64,000 bases of DNA from the NCBI GenBank assembly GCA_013822275.1, contig PNKC01000007.1, positions 1-64,000 of the forward strand, in the 5' to 3' direction. The stretch comes from Anaerolinea sp. Lineage in GTDB: Bacteria > Chloroflexota > Dehalococcoidia > Tepidiformales > Tepidiformaceae. The number at the start of each line of letters is the position of its first letter. Position 1 is the stretch's first letter. Under the pieces are notes generated by a model. It was not told the DNA's origin, ran no database searches, and saw nothing but the letters and a program-made list of their open reading frames with translations. Positions 23,705-35,382 of the stretch are shown here, piece by piece. Both the position numbers and the translations under genes were made by a program.

Positions 23705-24592
23705 TCAGCGCCAGTTAACGCACGTCAGAACACGATCTCGGACCCGACCGTCTGGGCCGCGGTACGGGGCGTACATTGAACGGCACTCTGCTTGGTGTAC
23801 GCGCGTCGAAGTTGGTAACTGCTCGATGCCTTGGGTCGTGGTCCGCTCCGTCCACGCACGCCCTATTACAGTTTCACTACCTATCGATTTATTCAGGGCC
23901 AGAAACGGTGAATCAGGATGACCGTAGATCCGTCTCGCACGGAGCTTGGCCTCAGGTTTCATCGTGCCATCGTCAAAGCCAGGGAGTACCTTTTGGTCAA
24001 GGCGCGCGAGCTCCACCTTCCGGTATCCGGGTTCCCAAAAAACGAACGTCGCGTTCCAAATCCTCATACGTGAAACTTGGAATGCAGTTGCTTCCAGCGA
24101 GGCGCCAGCGTGGTCGCCGATCTCGAGCAATGCTTCCAAAGTCGGACTACTAGACTCAAGCCTCGGTTGGAGCCAGGCCGGGTGTAGTAGCATTCGTCCG
24201 GCCCCGACGTCACAGAGGTACTCCTCATCACTCCTCTCATCGTAGCGGCCTGTCCACTCCGGAGGGTTCACAGGGGTGACTTGTTGTGCCTCGTGGAAGA
24301 ACGTGTGGCAAATCTCGTGAGCGACCGTAAATCGCTGCCGTGAAGCCGAGTCCTCAGCATTGACCACGACGATATAATGACCGCCCTCCCGTTGCAGCTG
24401 TCCGGAGCGGGGCATTTCTGCGACGGAGATCTCGCGGATCCCCCGAAACGAGGCGACCACTTCCAGCGGAACTGGAGGGAGGTCCGCCTCTGCCATCTCC
24501 AGGAGTTTGTCGACCAGCGCTTCGATCGCCGCGATTGGCTGGTCCCTATCTGCGAGTCGGCAGAGCGCTTGCGCCGCTGAAGTCATCGCCAT
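23705..24592 (-). CDS. ImmA/IrrE-family metallopeptidase
   Basis: HExxH motif in RFTVAHEICHTFFHEAQQV; immediately downstream of an XRE gene. Confidence 0.8.
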   Translation of the reverse strand: MAMTSAAQALCRLADRDQPIAAIEALVDKLLEMAEADLPPVPLEVVASFRGIREISVAEMPRSGQLQREGGHYIVVVNAEDSASRQRFTVAHEICHTFFHEAQQVTPVNPPEWTGRYDERSDEEYLCDVGAGRMLLHPAWLQPRLESSSPTLEALLEIGDHAGASLEATAFQVSRMRIWNATFVFWEPGYRKVELARLDQKVLPGFDDGTMKPEAKLRARRIYGHPDSPFLALNKSIGSETVIGRAWTERTTTQGIEQLPTSTRVHQAECRSMYAPYRGPDGRVRDRVLTCVNWR

Positions 24593-24604
24593 CGCGGAGA
24601 ACCC

Positions 24605-25021
24605 TCACCGGTCGCGTTGTTCCTGGATTCGCATCCGGATGGAGTCGTAGATGTACGCCCAGTCCTCGGACGATACGGGCTTCTGACCGCGATAGCTGAT
24701 TCCCATCAGCATCTGGATATCCGCTTCAGGCAGTCCTCTGTCCTTAGCGAACGTCCGAAGCCCGTCTGGAATCTCCCGGTGGGCCGGGGCCTCGCCCTTG
24801 TCCTCAGGATCAAGGAGGTCAGCCACCGTCGCACCAAGTTGCTTTGCGATTCGGTACAGCGTTGCCGCCGAAGGCCTCCCGGCCGAGCCTGACTCCAACT
24901 CGTAGAGATATCCCTTTGAGACTTGGGCCATCCGCGCGAGCTCAGGCAGCGTCAGGCCCTGTTCGAGTCGTTTTTGCCTGATGCTCTCTCCAACTCGCAT
25001 GCCGCTCATAGTACCGGCCAT
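24605..25021 (-). CDS. XRE-family helix-turn-helix regulator
   Basis: MRVGESIRQKRLEQGLTLPELARMAQVSKGYLYELESGSAGRPSAATLYRIAKQLGATVADLL. Confidence 0.85.
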   Translation of the reverse strand: MAGTMSGMRVGESIRQKRLEQGLTLPELARMAQVSKGYLYELESGSAGRPSAATLYRIAKQLGATVADLLDPEDKGEAPAHREIPDGLRTFAKDRGLPEADIQMLMGISYRGQKPVSSEDWAYIYDSIRMRIQEQRDR

Positions 25022-25092
25022 GGTTCTCCAGCGCGAACCGCACAAGTCTTGACGAGCGAACTCTGAACCTGCTAGGTTCTCTATCGAGAACC
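25022..25092. promoter_or_regulatory. Divergent promoter/operator region with five GGTTC/GAACC half-sites
   Basis: ggttc 25022-26, gaacc 25035-39, gaacc 25065-69, ggttctc 25075-81, gagaacc 25086-92; plus-strand promoter-like ttgacg(25049)-18-taggtt(25073). Confidence 0.5.
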
Positions 25093-25135
25093 CAGGGTGG
25101 CGTGCGGATTCGCCGCCACAGGAGGAGACGCCGGC

Positions 25136-25426
25136 ATGGCCGAGAACCACAGGGTTACGTGCATCAACAAAAGCGACCGGTATAACCCGCATGAGCGCAT
25201 ACGTTCTATCGGGGGGAAGAACGCGGATGGCACAGCCTGGAAGTTGACCCAGCAGGCCGCGATCGAAGGCATCGAGTCGGGCAAGTGGTCCTTCTATGTC
25301 GAGAGGCCGGCTGGCGACCGAGTGCGGGTGGTTGTTGCCCTCAGCGCGGCCGGCAACAAGTACCTTAAGACCGAGGCAGATGGAGACCAGCCGAACAACC
25401 TCCTGGCGCTCCCGGAGTGCCCGTGA
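25136..25426 (+). CDS. DUF3892-domain protein
   Basis: MAENHRVTCINKSDRYNPHERIRSIGG...QQAAIEGIESGKWSFYV...KYLKTEADGDQPNNLLALPECP. Confidence 0.75.
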   Translation: MAENHRVTCINKSDRYNPHERIRSIGGKNADGTAWKLTQQAAIEGIESGKWSFYVERPAGDRVRVVVALSAAGNKYLKTEADGDQPNNLLALPECP

Positions 25427-25569
25427 TACGTCGCGCCGCCTTATGGCGCCCTTGCCAACGGGCCACCTCGCGCGCCTGGCCTGTTCGCATCCGTCATCTG
25501 GGGAGAAACGGCTCACCGGTCAGAAGGAGCGCCGTGGTGGGGATCCCTCATACTTCGCGTGAGCATTGA

Positions 25570-27279
25570 ATGGTGGTACTCGTGGGCGTTCAGAGTGCAG
25601 GTCCGGAACCGGTCGGCTTTGTCCTTGGGACCGAGGATGCAACCCCGCTCGACTTCTGGGTCGCAGTGCAGCCGGGGTCCTACCTCCAGCTGGATGATGT
25701 GGTCGCGCTAGAGCGCGTCCTTCCATCGGGCGAGGTCGTGGGCATCTTCGGCGTCGTCAGCCAGGTCCGCGCCCGGCACGAGGGTGCCCGGTTCGACAGC
25801 GACGTGTTCCTTATCCGCAGCGGCGTCCTTCCGGCGGAAGTTGTTGAGGCCGCGAACATAACATCGACGCGCTTCGAACCCGAACTCTTCGTCCCGCCGA
25901 TCCCGGGCTCGCCAGTGCGCAAAGCCGAGGGTGCAGAGCGCGAGCAGGCGCTCTACTTCGACGGCATGGAGCGACGGCTGCCTATCGGCCTTTCCCGCGA
26001 TGGCCAGCCAGTCTTCGCGAACTTCGACTTCATGGACGGTACACGCGGCGCACATGTCAACATCAGTGGCATCTCCGGAGTCGCAACCAAAACCTCGTAC
26101 GCCTGCTTCCTTCTCTACAGCCTCTTCCGCTCAAAGCTGATGGGCGGCGCCGGTCTCAATGCGAAGGCGCTCATCTTCAACGTGAAGAGCGAAGACCTCC
26201 TCTTCCTCGACAAGCCGAACCTGCGCCTCGACGTGCAACGGCGCGCCCGGTATGAGTCCCTCGGCCTTCCTGCCGGGCCCTTCCCTTCGGTCGAGTTCTG
26301 GGCGCCACCCCGACGGAATGTGCCTTCCGCGATCCCAGATGTGCACGGCCGGACCGAGGGAGTGACGGCCTTCTTCTGGACTCTAGCCGACTTCTGCAGC
26401 AGCGACCTCCTCCCATTCCTCTTCGCCGACGCCGAGGACGAACGGGCGCAGTACCCGATCGTCCTCCACAACGTTATGGCGAAGCTGCGCCAGGGAAAGG
26501 CCGGCACGGACGGCGCAGTCATCATCGAAGGGGAGACCTGCCGTACCTTCCGTGAGCTCGTGGATCTCATCGCCGGTCGTGTCGATGACGACACCACCGA
26601 CTGGGGAGGGCGCGCAGTCACACCCGGCACGCGAAACGCCTTCATCCGTCGGCTCGAAGGCGCTGTCCGCCACATCGGCCACCTCATCCGCGCGGACATC
26701 CCCGGTGCCACCGACCACGCCATCCGCTTCCAGCAGCAGGTCACCGTCGTCGACATTCACAACCTCAACGACCGGGCCCAGCGCTTCGTTGTGGGGGTCA
26801 TCCTCCGCCAGGTTTTGGACACCAAGGAGCGCCAGGGTCGGCCAGACCCCCTTCAGTTCGTGGTTTTGGACGAGCTGAACAAGTACGCACCCCGTGAGGG
26901 CTCAAGCCCGATCAAGGAGATTCTTCTCGACATCGCTGAACGAGGCCGCTCGCTCGGCATCAGCCTGATCGGCGCCGAACAGACCGCGAGCGAAGTCGAG
27001 CGACGAATCGTCGCGAACTCGTCCCTGCGCGTCGTCGGCCGCCTCGACAGCGCGGAGGCGGGCCGCGAAGAGTATGGATTCCTGCCGGTCAGCACCCGCC
27101 AGCGCGCGACCATCCTCAAGCCTGGCACTATGGTAGTCTCGCAGCCGGAGATCCCGGTCCCACTCGTCATCGAGTTCCCGTTCCCAGCATGGGCTACCCG
27201 CAATGACGAGGCTGGCCCGGCGCCCGGCTCCGTGCCGCTCGACCCATTTGATGGCCTCGTGGAGGAGCCTTCTCAATGA
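25570..27279 (+). CDS. HerA-like (DUF87) DNA translocase ATPase
   Basis: N-terminal HAS-barrel-like region, GISGVATKTSYACFLLYSLF P-loop-like, VVLDELNKYAPREGSSPIKEILLDIAERGRSLGISLIGAEQTASEV; first gene of a coupled operon. Confidence 0.75.
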   Translation: MVVLVGVQSAGPEPVGFVLGTEDATPLDFWVAVQPGSYLQLDDVVALERVLPSGEVVGIFGVVSQVRARHEGARFDSDVFLIRSGVLPAEVVEAANITSTRFEPELFVPPIPGSPVRKAEGAEREQALYFDGMERRLPIGLSRDGQPVFANFDFMDGTRGAHVNISGISGVATKTSYACFLLYSLFRSKLMGGAGLNAKALIFNVKSEDLLFLDKPNLRLDVQRRARYESLGLPAGPFPSVEFWAPPRRNVPSAIPDVHGRTEGVTAFFWTLADFCSSDLLPFLFADAEDERAQYPIVLHNVMAKLRQGKAGTDGAVIIEGETCRTFRELVDLIAGRVDDDTTDWGGRAVTPGTRNAFIRRLEGAVRHIGHLIRADIPGATDHAIRFQQQVTVVDIHNLNDRAQRFVVGVILRQVLDTKERQGRPDPLQFVVLDELNKYAPREGSSPIKEILLDIAERGRSLGISLIGAEQTASEVERRIVANSSLRVVGRLDSAEAGREEYGFLPVSTRQRATILKPGTMVVSQPEIPVPLVIEFPFPAWATRNDEAGPAPGSVPLDPFDGLVEEPSQ

Positions 27280-28469
27280 GGATCCTCCACACTTCCGATT
27301 GGCATGCTGGGCGGACCGTCCGCGGTCGCAGCCGCGACGACGAGCTCCGCGCGGTCCTATCCGAGATCACCGGGATCGCTCGCGATGAGGGCGTTGATAT
27401 CGTTGTCGTGCCCGGTGACACGTTCGACCACGCTGCGCCATCGGCTGCGGCGGAGACGATCGTCTACGATGCGCTCCTCGCCCTTCGTGATGCCGGCGCG
27501 CGCGTGGTTCTTGTTAGCGGAAACCACGACAGCGCCCTCCGCCTCCATGCGGTGAAGCCCTTGCTGGAGCGCCTCGGCGTTGTCACTGGAGCCCTGCTTC
27601 AGCGGCCGGGCGAGGGTGGTTGCGTCAACATCTCGGTCGAACGCACAGGCGAGGTCGCGCGCGTCGCTCTCCTCCCGTGGATGAGCCAGCGCGGCATCAT
27701 CACCGCCCAGACGCTGATGGAGCAGGAGACGGCCGCCCAGCAGCTGAAGTACGCGGCGCGCTGTGCCTCGGTGCTGGCTGCCCTGTGCGACGGCATGGAC
27801 AGCAGCCAGAGCGTTAACATTCTCGCCTCCCACATTTGCCTCGCCAACGCCGCCCTCCCTGATGGAGGCGACGACCGCACGTTCGCCTCGCTCCTTGGCG
27901 GCGGCGAACGCAGGGCCGAAACCATCTTCGACTACTGGGTATCGCCGCAAGCGCTTCCCTCACACCTGCACTACGCCGCCCTCGGTCACATCCATCGCCA
28001 GCAGCAGATCGGCGCCGCGGGATGCCCGGCCTGGTACTGTGGCGCGCCCATGCAACTCGATTTTGGCGAGAAGCCCGTCGGCCAGGGCGTCCTCCTTATT
28101 GACGCCGCGCCCGGCAAGCCCGCCAGCGTTCGGCCGATCCCGCTCGGCTCGGGCCGCAAGATGCTCATCGTCACCGGCTCACTCGCGGAGGTTCGGGCAA
28201 AGATCGAGAACGGCGCCACCGCCGATGCGTGGCTGCGCGTCGACCTTGATGAGGTCCCGCGCCCCGGGCTCGCTGAGGAACTGCGGGACCTATCCGCGAA
28301 CATCGTCGACATCCGGCTCATCCGGGAGGCAGGGGCAGCAGAAGGGTCCGTCGCGACCCGCCCCGATGGCCCCATGGAACTCTTCCACGCCTACCTCGAA
28401 TCGCGCGGCGAGGTTGAGCCGGCGGTCGAGACCCTCTTCGCCGAACTCCTCTCGGAGGTTGCAGACTGA
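27276..28469 (+). CDS. SbcD/Mre11-family nuclease
   Basis: RILHTSDWHAGRT, VVVPGDTFDHAAPS, VLVSGNHDSALRL, YAALGHIHRQQQI; ATGA overlap with herA-like gene. Confidence 0.85.
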   Translation: MRILHTSDWHAGRTVRGRSRDDELRAVLSEITGIARDEGVDIVVVPGDTFDHAAPSAAAETIVYDALLALRDAGARVVLVSGNHDSALRLHAVKPLLERLGVVTGALLQRPGEGGCVNISVERTGEVARVALLPWMSQRGIITAQTLMEQETAAQQLKYAARCASVLAALCDGMDSSQSVNILASHICLANAALPDGGDDRTFASLLGGGERRAETIFDYWVSPQALPSHLHYAALGHIHRQQQIGAAGCPAWYCGAPMQLDFGEKPVGQGVLLIDAAPGKPASVRPIPLGSGRKMLIVTGSLAEVRAKIENGATADAWLRVDLDEVPRPGLAEELRDLSANIVDIRLIREAGAAEGSVATRPDGPMELFHAYLESRGEVEPAVETLFAELLSEVAD

Positions 28470-30907
28470 TGCGTCCCATCCTGCTCGAAATGGAGGGCTT
28501 TTCATCGTTCCGGCAGAAAGCCGTGCTTCGCTTCGACGACTGCGATCTGTTCGTCCTCACTGGCCGCACCGGCTCCGGCAAGTCCAGCGTAATCGACGCC
28601 CTCACGTTTGCCCTCTACGGCTCCATCTCCCGGCTCGATAACGCTGGCGCGGTCGCGCCCGTTATCAACCAGGGCTCAATTCGGGCGCGCGTCAGTCTGA
28701 CGTTTATGGCCGGCAGCCACCGCTACACGCTTACCCGCGAGGTCTCGCGGAAATCAAGCACAAAGGCCGCGTTGGAGCGCGACGATGTCCCCGTCGCAGC
28801 CTCTGTGCGTGAGGTCGACCGCGAGATCGAGTCGCTGCTCGGCTTGAGCTTCGAGCAGTTCACGAAGTCCGTCGTCCTCCCCCAGGGCGATTTCGCCGAA
28901 TTCCTCCACGCCAACACGAAGGACCGCCAGGACCTCTTGGTGAAGCTGCTCGACGCCGAGCTCTTCCGCCGTGTCCAGAAGCAGGCGAGCGGACGTGCCG
29001 CGACCCTGAAGGCGGACCTCGACGCTACAGAGAACAACATCGTCCGCGAACAGACGACCATCCGTCGCCGCTCTTCGGTGCTCGGCTTCGAGCTCCTCGA
29101 CGACCACCTGTCGGAGGAAGACGAGGACGCCGCGATCGACGCCGGCACGCTTCGTGTCGGTGCACTCTCGTCACTGGTGAAGGGCGTTGAAGCGGCTGTC
29201 GCGGAGCTTCAGCGCCTCGCCGCAGAAAAGCGCGCCATCGACGACGAATCGGCGCGCTGCCGGACGGCTTCCTCCCAGTTGGAAGCAGTCGTAGCCCCGC
29301 CCGCGCTGCAGGACCTTCACCAACGTCTCGACGGCGCGCGGGCGGCCGTCCGTGCCGCCCAAGAGGCGCTGCAAGTGGCAGAGGATGCGCAGCTCGAAGC
29401 CGAGAAGTCCCTGACCGCTCTCCCGCCGCGCGCCGATGTCACTGCGATCGTGAAGCTCTGGGGACAGAATGCCGCCCAACTCGACCTGCTTGGACCAGCC
29501 GAGGATGCCCTCGTGACGGCGGTGGCGAATGCCGTCAACGCCGTCGCCGAGCACCAGTCGGCCGAGATGTTTGCCGCGCGCGCGATGGCTGAGCGCGAGC
29601 GCGTGCTCCAGCAAAATCATGCCTTCGCTGCCGCACGAGGACTCGCTGCAGGCGATGCCTGCCCAATCTGTGGCGAAACCCTGGCGGATGCCCCAGCTCT
29701 CCCCACACCGGAGGGCATCGACGCCGCACAGACGGCGCTCGCCCGGGCCGAGGGTGCGGTGGAGGCTGCCCGCCGCATCGTGAACACGACCGGCAAGACT
29801 GAGGCCGTAGCTCGCGAAAGACTCGATGGCCTCATCGCCCTTAAGGCCCAGATCGAGCGAGAACTCGACGGCAAGGACGCGTTGTCCGCCTGTCGTGACA
29901 CTCTCGGTCAGATTGCGCTAGCCGAAGCTGCAGTAAGCCAAGCGCGCGGTGCGCTGACCGCCGCGCGGGACACGCTCACGAATGGACGCAAGGCGCTCTC
30001 CGCCCTCGACGACGAGACCACTGCCGCCTGGGCAACCTTCAGTGAGCGCACCACCGCCTGCGCGGCCCTTGGCACGCCACCTTATCGCAAAGAGAACGAC
30101 CTCGCTGGAAGCTGGGCCGCGCTCGAAGTATGGGCTCGTGCCGAAGCAGCCGGCTACCACGAGAAGGCGCAGGTCGCCGCAACCACGGCAACCCAACTTG
30201 CGGAGCAGGCCCAAGCCCAAGCCCACGCCCAGTACAACGACTGTGCCGCGCTGGCCGTCGTCGTCGAGCCCGGCCAGCAGCCGCTCCTCGCTGCCAACGC
30301 CGCACACACCCACGCGGAGCGCGACCTCGCGGATCTTCAGGCCGCGACTGGCGAGCGCCGTCGCCTGGACAACGAGCGCACATTGCTCCGCACCAACTGG
30401 CAGGCGGCCGAATCGCTCAACAGCCACCTCCGCGCCAATCGCTTCGAACAGTGGTACCTCGAAGAAGCACTCAGCCGCCTCCTCGAGGGCGCCTCGGCGA
30501 CGCTGCGCGAACTGAGCGCTGGCCAGTACTCCCTCAAGCTCGACGAAAACCGCAAAGACTTCCTCGTCATCGACCACACCAACGCCGACGAGACACGACC
30601 GGTTAAGACGCTCTCCGGCGGCGAAACCTTCCTCGCCTCTCTCTCGCTTGCTCTCGCCCTCGCCGACGAGATCGCCCTTCTCGCGCCCGCCACCGCACCC
30701 CGGCTCGAAGCCCTCTTCCTCGACGAAGGCTTCGGCACGCTTGACCCCGACACGCTCGACACCGTCGCCGGGGCTATCGAAGAACTTGGCGCACGCGGAC
30801 GCATGGTCGGCATCGTCACCCATGTGCCCGAGCTCGCCGAACGCGTGCCCGTCCGGTTCAGGGTCACGAAAGTGGGCGGCACTTCCCGCATCGACCGAGA
30901 ACCATGA
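28469..30907 (+). CDS. SbcC/Rad50-family ATPase
   Basis: LTGRTGSGKSSVIDALTFALYG, Zn-hook CPICGE, TLSGGETFLASLSLALALADEI, LEALFLDEGFGTLDPDTLDTV. Confidence 0.85.
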   Translation: MRPILLEMEGFSSFRQKAVLRFDDCDLFVLTGRTGSGKSSVIDALTFALYGSISRLDNAGAVAPVINQGSIRARVSLTFMAGSHRYTLTREVSRKSSTKAALERDDVPVAASVREVDREIESLLGLSFEQFTKSVVLPQGDFAEFLHANTKDRQDLLVKLLDAELFRRVQKQASGRAATLKADLDATENNIVREQTTIRRRSSVLGFELLDDHLSEEDEDAAIDAGTLRVGALSSLVKGVEAAVAELQRLAAEKRAIDDESARCRTASSQLEAVVAPPALQDLHQRLDGARAAVRAAQEALQVAEDAQLEAEKSLTALPPRADVTAIVKLWGQNAAQLDLLGPAEDALVTAVANAVNAVAEHQSAEMFAARAMAERERVLQQNHAFAAARGLAAGDACPICGETLADAPALPTPEGIDAAQTALARAEGAVEAARRIVNTTGKTEAVARERLDGLIALKAQIERELDGKDALSACRDTLGQIALAEAAVSQARGALTAARDTLTNGRKALSALDDETTAAWATFSERTTACAALGTPPYRKENDLAGSWAALEVWARAEAAGYHEKAQVAATTATQLAEQAQAQAHAQYNDCAALAVVVEPGQQPLLAANAAHTHAERDLADLQAATGERRRLDNERTLLRTNWQAAESLNSHLRANRFEQWYLEEALSRLLEGASATLRELSAGQYSLKLDENRKDFLVIDHTNADETRPVKTLSGGETFLASLSLALALADEIALLAPATAPRLEALFLDEGFGTLDPDTLDTVAGAIEELGARGRMVGIVTHVPELAERVPVRFRVTKVGGTSRIDREP

Positions 30908-31833
30908 GCAAGCGCTTTACCGTCGAGTCCTGGGCCCCCGAGTTCGGCGCTCCCTTCGACGTCGATCCGGAACCCGACGATCACAAGGCCAGAGTCGACG
31001 CCAGTGTCGAGATGGACCCGGGCGCTTGGCGTGCGATCCAAGTCCATTCACCACCAGCGCAAGCCGTGGCCTTCGTCGACGGCGTCCGTCGCATTGATGC
31101 GCGCCTCTGGGTGGAGGAGGAAGATAGCGTCCGGCTTGCGCTGTGTGCGTCCTACGCGGCGGGCGCCGTTCACTGTGACGGTGTAGCCAAGGTAGTCTCC
31201 GCTCAGGTTGCGAGAAGCGTCGTCGGGCCGGCTAGCCTGGGCCCGATTCTCAGCAGCGTCGGCACGTTCGAAGCCATCCCGGCCGCCACGGACGCTCTCC
31301 CAGACCTCGTGAACCACGTCCAGATCGCGCTCCAGGAGCTCGAGGCTTCGGTCACCCAGTCACTCGGGCCGGTGCCACTCCTCGTTGTCGATGGTTCCCT
31401 CACGGGCCGCGAGAACGTACCCAACGTTGTCGGCTACCTGAAGAGCCATCAGGTTGTCTATCTCGACGGCGCGCCCGGACAGGTTGTCGCCCAACTCACA
31501 CCAGGTGAGCGGACGCCCGTATTCCTCGTCGAGACGACCTGGAGCCGCTATTCCTGGTACTTGCGCCTCCCCGGTGGCCGCGGGCATCCCTGGTCCGGTA
31601 TCGTCCGGTGCGAGGCCTCGGCCTCGCGCTCGCCCGCCGACGCCATCCACCTCGCCGATCTTGCTGCCGCCACGATCCCCGCCTTCGCTTCGGAAGAGTA
31701 CAAGGACCCGCGAGCACCGCAGAACCTGTATCCCGTAGCGGGCCTCGAGCGTGAGCTCAAACGGCGCCTGGGGGATCCCGGCCTGGTTTATCGCGGCCTC
31801 CTTCGGGCGAGCCAGGTTTCCGCGCCGAGCTAA
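30904..31833 (+). CDS. NurA-like nuclease
   Basis: AVAFVDGVRRIDARLW and PLLVVDGSLTGRENVPNVVGYLKSH fit NurA motifs; genomic context with HerA/Mre11/Rad50; ATGA overlap. Confidence 0.65.
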   Translation: MSKRFTVESWAPEFGAPFDVDPEPDDHKARVDASVEMDPGAWRAIQVHSPPAQAVAFVDGVRRIDARLWVEEEDSVRLALCASYAAGAVHCDGVAKVVSAQVARSVVGPASLGPILSSVGTFEAIPAATDALPDLVNHVQIALQELEASVTQSLGPVPLLVVDGSLTGRENVPNVVGYLKSHQVVYLDGAPGQVVAQLTPGERTPVFLVETTWSRYSWYLRLPGGRGHPWSGIVRCEASASRSPADAIHLADLAAATIPAFASEEYKDPRAPQNLYPVAGLERELKRRLGDPGLVYRGLLRASQVSAPS

Positions 31834-31844
31834 CCTTCTGGCGG

Positions 31845-33995
31845 CTAAACCGGCTCTCGTCGGCCGCTCCGGGTGCGGTCAAACACAGCCAGAACTCCTG
31901 CCGCACACATTAGCCGCTCGCCATCGGCGATGACGTTCGTGATGCTCTTGGAGAACTGGGCAGTCCAGACTGCATGCCCACTCCTATCGACCACCGCGAG
32001 CCGGTTCCGGTACCAGACGAACAGGTCGTTTCCTACGAGGCCAATGTCCCGGGGCGGCTCTTCGAACTCCGCGAAGCTCCGCAGCTCGTCCTCCTCGAGG
32101 CAGAACAAGATGCCGTCGCACCACGCGGCGGCCAAGGAGCCGTTGCGACCGACGACTGGTCTCGCCCACCCGTTGCCGAGCGCATGCGTCCCGCGGACAC
32201 GTCCCGTCGAATCCAGGTGGAGTAGCTTTCCATCGCTCGAGCCTACGAAGACGGAACCGAGCGCAGGCGCGAGGTGCGAGACCGTCGGGCCAGGCCCCGT
32301 GAGCGTCACTGTAATGCCGAGGAAGGACTCATCGTCATCGTCGGGGCCGTTCCTCATCAGGGTCTCGTATGCGGCGTGAACCCGCCTGAAACGGTCGGCT
32401 GTGGCTGCGTCACCGGGGTGCCGGTCAGGGTGGGTGTCCATGGCCCGAAGTCGGTACGCCCGCTTCACGTCGTCCGGAGTCGCACCGCGCTCCAACCCGA
32501 GCTCTGAACGCGCCTCCTGAGACGAGAGGCCGTCACTGAGTGGCACGGACAGTGTGTAGCTTTTGGGCTCGCTCGGCAGCTCGAAGTGCCAGACCGTCTT
32601 GCCGGCCGGGCTGATACCGTAGAGATGCCCCATGCTCGAAACGACGACCTGTTCGCCTGTCCAGGTCACGTAGTAAGGGCACGGGCGGGAGTAGGCATCG
32701 CCATCCTTGTTTGCCCCGGGCGTGGTCCAGCGCCAGAGCGCTTTCCCGTCGAGACCGAACGCATGGAGGCCGCCGTCCCGGCAGCCGACGTACCAGGAGT
32801 CTCGGCCGGCGGCAATCTGCGATGTCGCATCCGGGACCTGTCCGGCGTTGATGACATCGGCATCGGGCGAGATGAACCACAACCGTGTCGGTCCCTCGCC
32901 GATTCTTGCGGTTCGCGCGGCTCCAATGCTCCACCCGGATTGAGAGAACCGAGCCTCAGTGAAGCCGGGCAAATTGTCGCGGCGAGCGAGTCCGGCGCCG
33001 TCCGCCAGCGCGAGATCGACGATGCTTCCCACGTCCTTGCTAACGCCGTAGGCGCGGACCATTCCGTCCAGGACCGCCAGCTCACGAATCGGCGGGCTCA
33101 CTCGGACCTGGAAGCGAAGCTCGAACGCCCCGTCCCCTTCCCGAACCGAGAATGCGGCCACGTCGGCCCGCTTCCTTCGTTCAGTCCTCGCCTGGCAGCG
33201 TTCCAGCCGTTTGCGGAGTTGCTCCTCAACATTGGCAGGCATCTTGCGCCGAAGCGCTTCTTCGATGACCCCGATAGCGCCAGCGTAATCCTTCCGCCGT
33301 TCGAGGTGCATCGAGAGCCTGTTGGCGGTCGTCGGATCGTCGCTGCCGTCTTCGAACGCGTCTTTCCAAAGGCGGAGGGCTTCGGCGAGTTCACCGGAAC
33401 GCTCGAGTATCTCCCCGAGATCTCCTATCGCCGCCCAGCATGCCGCTGTCACGCCCGCCTTCGCTGTCGAATCCACGACTCTCCTGGCCACCGCCAGCGC
33501 GAAGCCCGACGCGCCTGACCGGTCGGCGCGGCGGGCATGCGCAAGAAGTTCCTCCCACGGAACCTCAGCGGCATCATTGGTACCCCCCAGCGCTGGCGCC
33601 GAGCGCAACGCGGTATCGAACAGGCCGTCTATGTCCTGGCGCTTGGCCATTACCGTCATGTAGTCGTACCAGATGGCCGGGATATCGGTGCCCAACGCGA
33701 TGGCTTCCGCGAGCGTCTCAGATGCTTGGTCCACCTGTTCCAGGTCCAGAAGGAACGCGCCCAAGCGTCCCAGGGCATAGTGGACGTCTGCGGGTTCGTG
33801 GCGGCGATAAGCCTCGACTCCCTGTCTCAGAAGCCGCTCGGCGCCTACGAAGTCCTTCGCTTCCCAGGCCTGCAATCCTTCGGAGACATAGTCAATGGGC
33901 CGCTCGTACCTGATCGTCCGACGAATTTGGCTGTTGTTCGTTCGGCTCTCCTCCGTGTCAGGCGGTGGGCCGAACAGCCGCTTCAACCAACTCAC
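31845..33995 (-). CDS. TPR / beta-propeller-like protein with an internal DnaJ domain
   Basis: N-terminal TPR-like helices; PQQ/WD-like repeats (GRDSWYVGCRDGGLHAFGLDGKALWRW; VVSSMGHLYGISPAGKTVWHFELP; SVFVGSSDGKLLHLDSTGRV); J-domain ARSELGLERGATPDDVKRAYRLRAMDTHPDRHPGDAATADRFRRVHAAYETLM. Confidence 0.65.
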   Translation of the reverse strand: MSWLKRLFGPPPDTEESRTNNSQIRRTIRYERPIDYVSEGLQAWEAKDFVGAERLLRQGVEAYRRHEPADVHYALGRLGAFLLDLEQVDQASETLAEAIALGTDIPAIWYDYMTVMAKRQDIDGLFDTALRSAPALGGTNDAAEVPWEELLAHARRADRSGASGFALAVARRVVDSTAKAGVTAACWAAIGDLGEILERSGELAEALRLWKDAFEDGSDDPTTANRLSMHLERRKDYAGAIGVIEEALRRKMPANVEEQLRKRLERCQARTERRKRADVAAFSVREGDGAFELRFQVRVSPPIRELAVLDGMVRAYGVSKDVGSIVDLALADGAGLARRDNLPGFTEARFSQSGWSIGAARTARIGEGPTRLWFISPDADVINAGQVPDATSQIAAGRDSWYVGCRDGGLHAFGLDGKALWRWTTPGANKDGDAYSRPCPYYVTWTGEQVVVSSMGHLYGISPAGKTVWHFELPSEPKSYTLSVPLSDGLSSQEARSELGLERGATPDDVKRAYRLRAMDTHPDRHPGDAATADRFRRVHAAYETLMRNGPDDDDESFLGITVTLTGPGPTVSHLAPALGSVFVGSSDGKLLHLDSTGRVRGTHALGNGWARPVVGRNGSLAAAWCDGILFCLEEDELRSFAEFEEPPRDIGLVGNDLFVWYRNRLAVVDRSGHAVWTAQFSKSITNVIADGERLMCAAGVLAVFDRTRSGRREPV

Positions 33996-34026: not shown

Positions 34027-35382
34027 TCAGTCGACGGCTATGCCGATCAGCTGCCAGAAGACCGCCTCGGCGATAATCCGGCTTCCGTACGTTCGAGCCT
34101 TCCTCGCCTTGCCTGACGCTGATTGCGGATCTGCCACGACGAGAACGTCCAGCTTCTTTGTTACAGACTCAAGAACGACGAGGCCGGCTACACGCGCAAA
34201 CTCATGCGCTTGTTCTCGGGTCACTGCGCAGCCGTTGATTGTCGCCTGCAGCGCACCGGTGAAGCAGACGGTGGTTCCGGCGGGAAGCGCCGCGGGCCGG
34301 GTGTGCTCGGGTGCCCCTGCCTCGACGCCAGGCGATCGAGTGATGGCGCCCTCAACCAGGGCCGCGCCCAATCCCAGGAACTGACCGACGAGACGGAGAT
34401 CCGCCGCCTCCATATCGGATACCACGCCATCCTGCCAGGCGGTCCTGGTTAGCGACTCAAAAAGGTGGCGATGGAGCCCTTCAACAACCGCCGCCGAGAG
34501 CTCTTCAGACTGGGCCACAGATGCGAGCTGGCGTGCTTCCTCCGGGGAGAGGTATCGATCTTCGAGCGCCCTCTCCAGCAGGTCCAGATAGACAGCTTCG
34601 TTGGGGGAAGTGCCCGCGGTCTCCGTGGGGAGCTCTGCAACAAGCCGTGCGAGGTAGCCACGTTCGAACACGGCGAGCCGACTGGCCTCGCTCCGCAACA
34701 GTACTCGTCCCGTCGCGGGCAGCGGGGGCCATGCCTCGGGTTTCGGCTCGCAAAGGCACCCACACGAATTTAGGTCCAGCGTGACTCTCGCCGGGCGCGC
34801 CTGATACCAATGCGTGAGGACTTCGGCTGCTGCCCTGGCATCATTGATGGCCGTGTGCGACCCCGTGTAGTTGATTCCCAGGCTGGAACAGACCTCCGCC
34901 AGCCTGCGGCCTAAGCCTCCGCTGGCCGCAAGGCGCATCGTGCAAAGATGCGGTAGCGCTGGCGCATCGATCCCGGCCCGATGAAACTCCGCATCCAGGA
35001 ACCCGATGTCGAAGCGCGAGTTGTGGGCAACGATGACCCGGGTGCGAAGTGCGGTTACTACATCGGGGCCGATCTCAGCGAACGAAGGGGCGTGTGCCAG
35101 GTCAGCCATGCGGAGACCATGGATGTGCTGCGCGCCGAGATCTCGAGATGGGTTGACGAGCGTCTCGTACTCACATTCGATGCCGCCATCCAGGCTGAAG
35201 AGGACGATTCCCACCTCAACGACGCGGTCGTGTGCCTGGGGAAACAGGCCTGTGGTCTCGAGATCGAGCGCGGCGAACCCGTAGTCCCTCAGGCTTCGCC
35301 CCCTGGCAACGGTTGCCGGCATTTCCTGTGGTGCCGTCGTCGGTGTCGAGGGCTGAGCTGGCCTGAGGAACCTTCGAAGCAT
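34027..35382 (-). CDS. DnaQ-like 3'-5' exonuclease with C-terminal BRCT domain
   Basis: FAALDLETTGLFPQAHDRVVEVGIV, VIVAHNSRFDIGFLDAEF, GSHTAINDARAAAEVL; C-terminal TVCFTGALQATINGCAVTREQAHEFARVAGLVVLESVTKKLDVLVVAD. Confidence 0.8.
   Translation of the reverse strand: MLRRFLRPAQPSTPTTAPQEMPATVARGRSLRDYGFAALDLETTGLFPQAHDRVVEVGIVLFSLDGGIECEYETLVNPSRDLGAQHIHGLRMADLAHAPSFAEIGPDVVTALRTRVIVAHNSRFDIGFLDAEFHRAGIDAPALPHLCTMRLAASGGLGRRLAEVCSSLGINYTGSHTAINDARAAAEVLTHWYQARPARVTLDLNSCGCLCEPKPEAWPPLPATGRVLLRSEASRLAVFERGYLARLVAELPTETAGTSPNEAVYLDLLERALEDRYLSPEEARQLASVAQSEELSAAVVEGLHRHLFESLTRTAWQDGVVSDMEAADLRLVGQFLGLGAALVEGAITRSPGVEAGAPEHTRPAALPAGTTVCFTGALQATINGCAVTREQAHEFARVAGLVVLESVTKKLDVLVVADPQSASGKARKARTYGSRIIAEAVFWQLIGIAVD

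What the first reader, a model, noticed from the sequence alone, without database searches (positions are those of the whole stretch)
31845..33995. Beta-propeller/TPR protein with a J-domain inserted between propeller repeats
The J-domain (…YRLRAMDTHPDRHPGDAATADRFRRVHAAYETLM with intact HPD) lies inside the propeller-like C-terminal half, between two groups of GxLxxLxxxGxxxW-type repeats, after an N-terminal TPR region. J-domains are usually terminal. Located tail-to-tail with the NurA gene, it may be a chaperone-recruiting sensor of the island.
Basis: partly seen in the sequence, partly recalled or inferred. Interest (0 to 1): 0.65.

Follow-up and report, generated by a model that had tools for sequence, protein, structure and literature searches.

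The report
J-domain inside a propeller, nuclease island
A bacterial gene next to a set of DNA-end-cutting enzymes encodes an unusual protein in which a chaperone-recruiting J-domain sits in the middle of a wheel-shaped (beta-propeller) domain, suggesting, but not proving, that the Hsp70 chaperone machinery is tied to this DNA-repair or anti-phage island.

Summary
ORF 31845-33995 (-) encodes a 716-aa protein: TPR-like helical solenoid (~34-272), beta-propeller repeats (~282-486), J-domain with intact HPD (~492-549), more propeller repeats (~562-690). The J-domain passes Pfam's cut-off. Profile searches and Foldseek on a partial AlphaFold model both return PQQ/BamB-type propellers.

In Chloroflexota the gene is rare and tied to a NurA/HerA/SbcD/SbcC (archaeal-type end-resection) cassette: three of 38 family genomes carry it, all beside such a cassette. 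A fourth, distant relative in another class lies just upstream of the cassette but lacks the J-domain. The J-protein is conserved (71-75%) while its neighbouring cassette is of two different lineages (HerA 47% identical), so the association outlived replacement of the nucleases. CapH/CapP-like regulators and a PDC-S48 exonuclease flank the island.

The architecture is not restricted to such islands: related propeller-J-propeller proteins occur on Rhodobacterales plasmids and viral contigs without HerA.

Best reading: a class C J-domain co-chaperone whose TPR/propeller binds a client and recruits DnaK, serving as accessory or sensor of a damage-inducible or anti-phage resection island. Architecture and linkage are shown; client, DnaK recruitment and defence role are inferred.

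The parts
31845..33995 (-). TPR - propeller - J-domain - propeller protein, 716 aa
   Evidence: ORF; homologues L033, L034
33180..33896 (-). TPR-like helical solenoid, residues about 34-272
   Evidence: Pfam TPR_14; AlphaFold helices, pLDDT mostly 80-90
32538..33152 (-). propeller repeats before the J-domain, residues about 282-486
   Evidence: PDB profile hits 3hxj, Cake, Bagel; Foldseek
32349..32522 (-). J-domain, residues about 492-549, HPD at 522-524
   Evidence: PF00226 E=4e-12; helices pLDDT about 75-91 in the fragment model
31875..32312 (-). propeller repeats after the J-domain, residues about 562-707
   Evidence: PDB hits 7dxn, 7eq5; strands in the model
30904..31833 (+). NurA-like nuclease, tail-to-tail with the J-gene
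   Evidence: aligns with L034 NurA, which matches PF09376 just under the cut-off
28469..30907 (+). SbcC/Rad50-like ATPase with CPIC hook
   Evidence: Pfam/NCBIfam; hook motif
27276..28469 (+). SbcD/Mre11-like nuclease
   Evidence: TIGR00619 above cut-off
25570..27279 (+). HerA-like ATPase (divergent)
   Evidence: NF040937 HerA E=6e-6; PADLOC HerA/mad8; cassette synteny
24605..25516 (-). XRE regulator, CapH-like
   Evidence: HTH_3; PADLOC capH 1.7e-16
23705..24592 (-). M78/ImmA-IrrE metalloprotease, CapP-like, HEICH motif
   Evidence: PF06114; PADLOC capP 2.7e-18; motif
34027..35382 (-). DEDDh exonuclease with weak C-terminal BRCT match, 31 bp upstream of the J-gene on the same strand
   Evidence: PF00929 3.5e-24; PADLOC PDC-S48 2e-123

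Best explanation
It is a class C J-domain protein (J-domain but no DnaJ zinc-finger or G/F body) built on a TPR + PQQ/BamB-like propeller scaffold, and it works as an accessory factor of a HerA-NurA-SbcCD (Mre11-Rad50-type) DNA-end-processing island. Proposed mechanism: the TPR and propeller surfaces hold a particular client (a phage or host protein, or a large complex at DNA ends). The J-domain, inserted in an inter-blade linker, triggers DnaK ATP hydrolysis on that client, so that it is remodelled or monitored. CapH/CapP-like regulators probably induce the nuclease operon when ssDNA accumulates. Shown here: domain layout, intact HPD in the J-bearing homologues examined, purifying selection, linkage of all found Chloroflexota copies to the cassette, retention beside two different cassettes. 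Inferred: DnaK recruitment, client, sensing or remodelling role, inducible control.
For: J-domain passes Pfam's cut-off. HPD kept in 3 Chloroflexota and 3 Rhodobacterales homologues. Full DnaK genes in G001, G015 and G404; none found in the 77%-complete G000 MAG. Propeller on both sides of the J-domain. Linkage: J-protein in 3 of 38 family genomes, all among the 6 with the HerA cassette (Fisher p=0.002; not corrected for phylogeny) and all adjacent to it. The J-less G404 relative lies just upstream of NurA in another class. The cassette differs (window vs G015: HerA 47%, SbcD 38%, SbcC 36%, NurA 39%) while the J-protein C-terminus stays 71% identical. dN/dS 0.19 overall, about 0.22 in the J-domain. 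CapH/CapP-like neighbours; PprI and CapP are reported to be activated by ssDNA (PMC10904395). DnaJ co-chaperone activity is required for bNACHT25 phage sensing (PMC12169576).
Against: The J-domain is absent from the G404 relative. 18 of 22 Chloroflexota HerA loci examined have no such neighbour in the stretch read, so it is not a core subunit. The J-protein did not diverge with the cassette, which speaks against an intimate fit to HerA or NurA. The same layout exists without HerA in Rhodobacterales. No expression or interaction data; the propeller model has modest confidence.
Confidence: 0.5

Rival explanations
1. Infection sensor (guard) of an anti-phage island: the TPR/propeller captures phage proteins or senses proteostasis disturbance through DnaK and licenses the HerA-NurA-SbcCD nucleases.
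For: CapH/CapP-like genes, PDC-S48 neighbour, PDC-S37/Hhe-like helicase-nuclease inserted at the same spot in L033. Streptomyces plasmid cassette of the same type beside TIGR02678/02679/02680 and DUF2397 genes (Wadjet-like, from my own knowledge) and near a restriction endonuclease. Patchy distribution. DnaJ precedent bNACHT25.
Against: The J-gene is more diverged than the core, but its dS is also high, so this reflects an older split or recombination rather than positive selection. PADLOC has no model for the protein. HerA-NurA-Mre11-Rad50 is a repair system in archaea.
Confidence: 0.25
2. Assembly chaperone of the large HerA-NurA-SbcCD complex: the J-protein recruits DnaK to assemble or recycle the ring and the Rad50 complex.
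For: Constant adjacency in Chloroflexota, same-strand position in G404.
Against: J-protein 71% conserved next to cassettes only 36-47% identical; most cassettes lack it; one TPR-propeller lacks the J-domain.
Confidence: 0.15
3. Passenger: an independent mobile accessory gene that merely sits in the same island, as its Rhodobacterales relatives sit on plasmids and in viral contigs.
For: Rhodobacterales copies stand alone near repABC, SSB, RadC or phage-like genes; lower GC3 of island genes than flanks; convergent, not co-transcribed with NurA in the window.
Against: 4 of 4 Chloroflexota occurrences abut the cassette, in two classes and with two cassette lineages.
Confidence: 0.1

Closest known systems
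Class C J-domain proteins with TPRs (e.g. DNAJC3/P58IPK, DNAJC7; from my own knowledge)
   Same: TPR client-binding scaffold plus J-domain with HPD
   Different: there the J-domain is near the C-terminus and there is no propeller; here it is inserted between propeller repeats
PQQ/BamB-type beta-propellers (3hxj, YxaL 7dxn, BamB)
   Same: repeat sequence and predicted fold
   Different: split by a J-domain and fused to a TPR solenoid; no PQQ-enzyme or outer-membrane assembly context
HerA-NurA-Mre11-Rad50 end-resection operon of thermophilic archaea (Constantinesco 2004, cited in PMC9960219)
   Same: the same four gene types side by side
   Different: bacterial, divergent, with CapH/CapP-like regulators and, in some loci, the TPR-propeller protein
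bNACHT25 with host DnaJ (PMC12169576)
   Same: J-domain/Hsp70 machinery tied to phage sensing
   Different: there the host's own DnaJ is used; here the island itself encodes the J-domain
GAP1-N2 GTPase conflict systems with DnaJ- or TPR-fused FNIII proteins (PMC7159879)
   Same: J-domain or TPR fused to a beta-rich repeat protein in a proposed conflict system
   Different: FNIII repeats, not a propeller; GTPase/HSP70 context rather than HerA/NurA

Membership tests
J-domain protein (class C) | J-domain sequence with HPD motif | tested here: met
   PF00226 46.4 bits against 27.8; HPD in all J-bearing homologues examined
J-domain protein (class C) | no full-length DnaJ body (G/F, zinc finger, C-terminal domains) | tested here: met
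   DnaJ full-length models match only residues 497-548, far below cut-offs
J-domain protein (class C) | stimulates Hsp70 ATPase | not testable with these tools
   needs biochemistry; DnaK present in G001, G015, G404, not found in the incomplete G000 MAG
PQQ/BamB-like beta-propeller | sequence passes a curated propeller family cut-off | tested here: not met
   Beta-prop_ACSF4 27.2 bits against 133; PQQ_2 26.3 against 27.6 in the G404 relative
PQQ/BamB-like beta-propeller | propeller fold | tested here: met
   profile to PDB 3hxj 2e-14; Foldseek probability 1.00 to propellers, TM-score mostly 0.3-0.4, probably because of the insert and low-confidence parts
PQQ/BamB-like beta-propeller | number of blades | tested here: inconclusive
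   residues 270-370 poorly modelled
HerA-NurA-Mre11-Rad50 cassette (neighbourhood) | four genes adjacent | tested here: met
   window and L033, L034, L075, plus most of the further loci read
HerA-NurA-Mre11-Rad50 cassette (neighbourhood) | coupled resection activity | not testable with these tools
   no biochemistry
catalogued anti-phage defence protein (PADLOC) | match of the J-protein to a defence model | tested here: not met
   0 families at E up to 1
CapH/CapP regulatory pair (neighbours) | XRE regulator plus M78 protease with HEXXH | tested here: met
   capH 1.7e-16, capP 2.7e-18; HEICH; cleavage not tested

The most novel reading that the evidence does not exclude
A new kind of immune or damage sensor: a J-in-propeller protein that couples DnaK-based proteostasis sensing to a CapH/CapP-switched HerA-NurA-Mre11-Rad50 nuclease, with related stand-alone versions carried by Rhodobacterales plasmids and viral contigs.
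Probability: 0.2. Interest if true: 0.8.

Novelty: new variant of a known kind. Interest (0 to 1): 0.52.

Why it matters
A J-domain placed between propeller repeats is, as far as the searched libraries and papers show, undescribed. It would mean that an island for DNA-end processing encodes its own Hsp70 adaptor. The J-less relative beside the same cassette and the stand-alone Rhodobacterales versions give a natural comparison set to ask what the J-domain adds.

Tried and rejected
Search of plasmids and phages with the full protein gave J-domain hits, mostly matching only the J-domain; Neisseria and Glaesserella hits were followed to unannotated or short J-proteins and dropped. IMG/VR with the Chloroflexota alignment gave J-domain-only hits. 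Most class- and phylum-level hits outside G001 and G404 are weak and look like generic TPR or PQQ repeats. A first guess that 7dxn is Deinococcus RqkA was dropped: Foldseek names it Bacillus YxaL. Faster divergence of the J-protein as a sign of an arms race was rejected: its dS is also about 1 against about 0.3 for the core. No literature found on J-in-propeller proteins or NurA/HerA in Chloroflexota, within an open-access library only. Full-length AlphaFold model too weak for the propeller (pLDDT 55).

Full report
Observation. The ORF at 31845-33995 on the minus strand (716 aa, GTG start) encodes TPR-like repeats, propeller repeats, a J-domain and further propeller repeats. Pfam calls TPR_14 and DnaJ above their cut-offs. 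The propeller is below every curated Pfam cut-off, but a profile of the family matches the natural PQQ propeller 3hxj at E=2e-14 and designed PQQ-type propellers (the latter E-values are inflated because the designed proteins consist of identical repeats). The part after the J-domain alone matches YxaL propellers. AlphaFold with only two sequences gives a good TPR solenoid and a medium-quality propeller plus a good J-domain in the fragment 270-716; Foldseek returns almost only propeller proteins in its best rows. The J-domain takes the place of a short inter-blade linker: in the distant relative of genome G404 the same blades are joined by about 30 residues without a J-domain.

Homologues and context. 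The window is from a MAG, 77% complete, of the same family as a MAG titled Chloroflexi. In 38 genomes of the family, the protein occurs in G000, G001 (= L033, 72% identity) and G015 (L034, contig ends inside the gene). All three lie tail-to-tail with the end of a cassette of HerA, SbcD, SbcC and NurA genes. The HerA profile finds the cassette's ATPase in 6 of these 38 genomes, and the three J-protein genomes are among them (Fisher p=0.002, not corrected for phylogeny). Among samples of 393 class and 400 phylum genomes, the one further convincing relative is in G404, the only genome held of a different class, 155 bp upstream of NurA-HerA-SbcD-SbcC and lacking the J-domain. The other 18 Chloroflexota HerA loci read here show no such neighbour in the stretch read (a few contigs end early), so the protein is an optional partner.

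Cassette replacement. Window and L033 have the order HerA-SbcD-SbcC-NurA; G015 and G404 have NurA-HerA-SbcD-SbcC and fall in a separate HerA clade. Window and G015 cassettes are 36-47% identical, but their J-protein C-termini are 71% identical, and the three family members are about equidistant (71-75%). So either the core cassette was replaced beside a resident J-gene, or the J-gene moved and landed at the same place. Between window and L033 the core genes have dS 0.26-0.32, the J-gene 0.99 and the CapP-like gene 1.25. The nucleotide identity falls from about 0.9 to about 0.7 inside the J-gene near 32250, as expected if a recombination tract covered the core and ended there. This is an inference from identity, not a formal recombination test.

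Island. Next to HerA, divergently, are an XRE regulator and an M78 protease that match CapH and CapP. PprI and CapP proteases are reported to be activated by ssDNA and to derepress downstream genes (PMC10904395). A DEDDh exonuclease matching PDC-S48 at 2e-123 is 31 bp upstream of the J-gene on the same strand; in L033 the two are separated by a 1646-aa helicase-nuclease matching PDC-S37 and Hhe. A Streptomyces plasmid has the same ImmA-HerA-SbcD-SbcC-NurA cassette beside TIGR02678/02679/02680 and DUF2397 genes. This favours a defence or damage-response island, but nothing was tested.

Wider family. Rhodobacterales plasmids (L078, L128, L129) and two IMG/VR contigs (L135, L136) carry proteins of about 700 aa; in the plasmid ones the J-domain lies at the equivalent place. 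Profile-profile alignment with the three plasmid proteins covers 453-711 of the Chloroflexota family at 97.6% probability, including stretches around the J-domain; the viral-contig ones match the plasmid family at 89% and 49%. Their neighbours are plasmid or phage-like genes, not HerA. The alignment score draws partly on the shared J-domain, so homology of the blades is likely but less certain than that of the J-domain, and the profile of the plasmid proteins alone did not hit a propeller of note in the PDB.

Mechanism. An intact J-domain on a TPR/propeller scaffold is most simply a client-specific Hsp70 adaptor. Because the J-protein did not co-diverge with HerA/NurA, I favour a client or signal outside the core complex, with sensing or remodelling in service of the island. 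Complete DnaK genes are present in G001, G015 and G404; absence in G000 is probably incompleteness. DnaJ's co-chaperone activity being needed for bNACHT25 phage sensing (PMC12169576) shows that such coupling exists.

Verdict. Observation confirmed; interpretation partly supported; new variant of the J-domain protein kind.

Noticed in passing
window 25570-31833 and L101-L115, L125-L127: Archaeal-type NurA/HerA/SbcD/SbcC cassettes occur patchily across Chloroflexota (HerA in 17 of 400 sampled genomes at E<=1e-60), in two gene orders; the literature found mentions bacterial NurA-HerA mainly in Deinococcus-Thermus.
   Followed up: partly
window 32250 (inside the J-gene): Identity to L033 drops from about 0.9 to about 0.7 here and dS rises from about 0.3 to about 1, consistent with a recombination breakpoint at the edge of the core cassette.
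   Followed up: partly
window 23705-25516: CapP/CapH-like protease and regulator, divergent from HerA; possible ssDNA-triggered switch for the operon.
   Followed up: partly
L033 4819-9759: 1646-aa helicase with MTES_1575 nuclease domain (PDC-S37/Hhe-like) inserted between the DEDDh gene and the J-gene.
   Followed up: partly
L136 7860-9956; L078 7429-9558; L128; L129; L135: Rhodobacterales propeller-J-propeller proteins on plasmids and viral contigs; in L136 downstream of genes that look like phage tail and lysis genes.
   Followed up: partly
N-termini of window, L033, L078, L129, L136 proteins: Shared short hydrophobic/basic start such as MSWLKRLFG, LGWLRRLLG, VFGIFRKIFG, MAGFLNRLFG; could be an amphipathic helix or docking peptide, or a commonplace start.
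   Followed up: no
L137 (Streptomyces plasmid, NZ_CP134205.1): ImmA-HerA-SbcD-SbcC-NurA cassette beside TIGR02678/02679/02680/DUF2397 genes (Wadjet-like) and near a restriction endonuclease, without a J-protein.
   Followed up: partly
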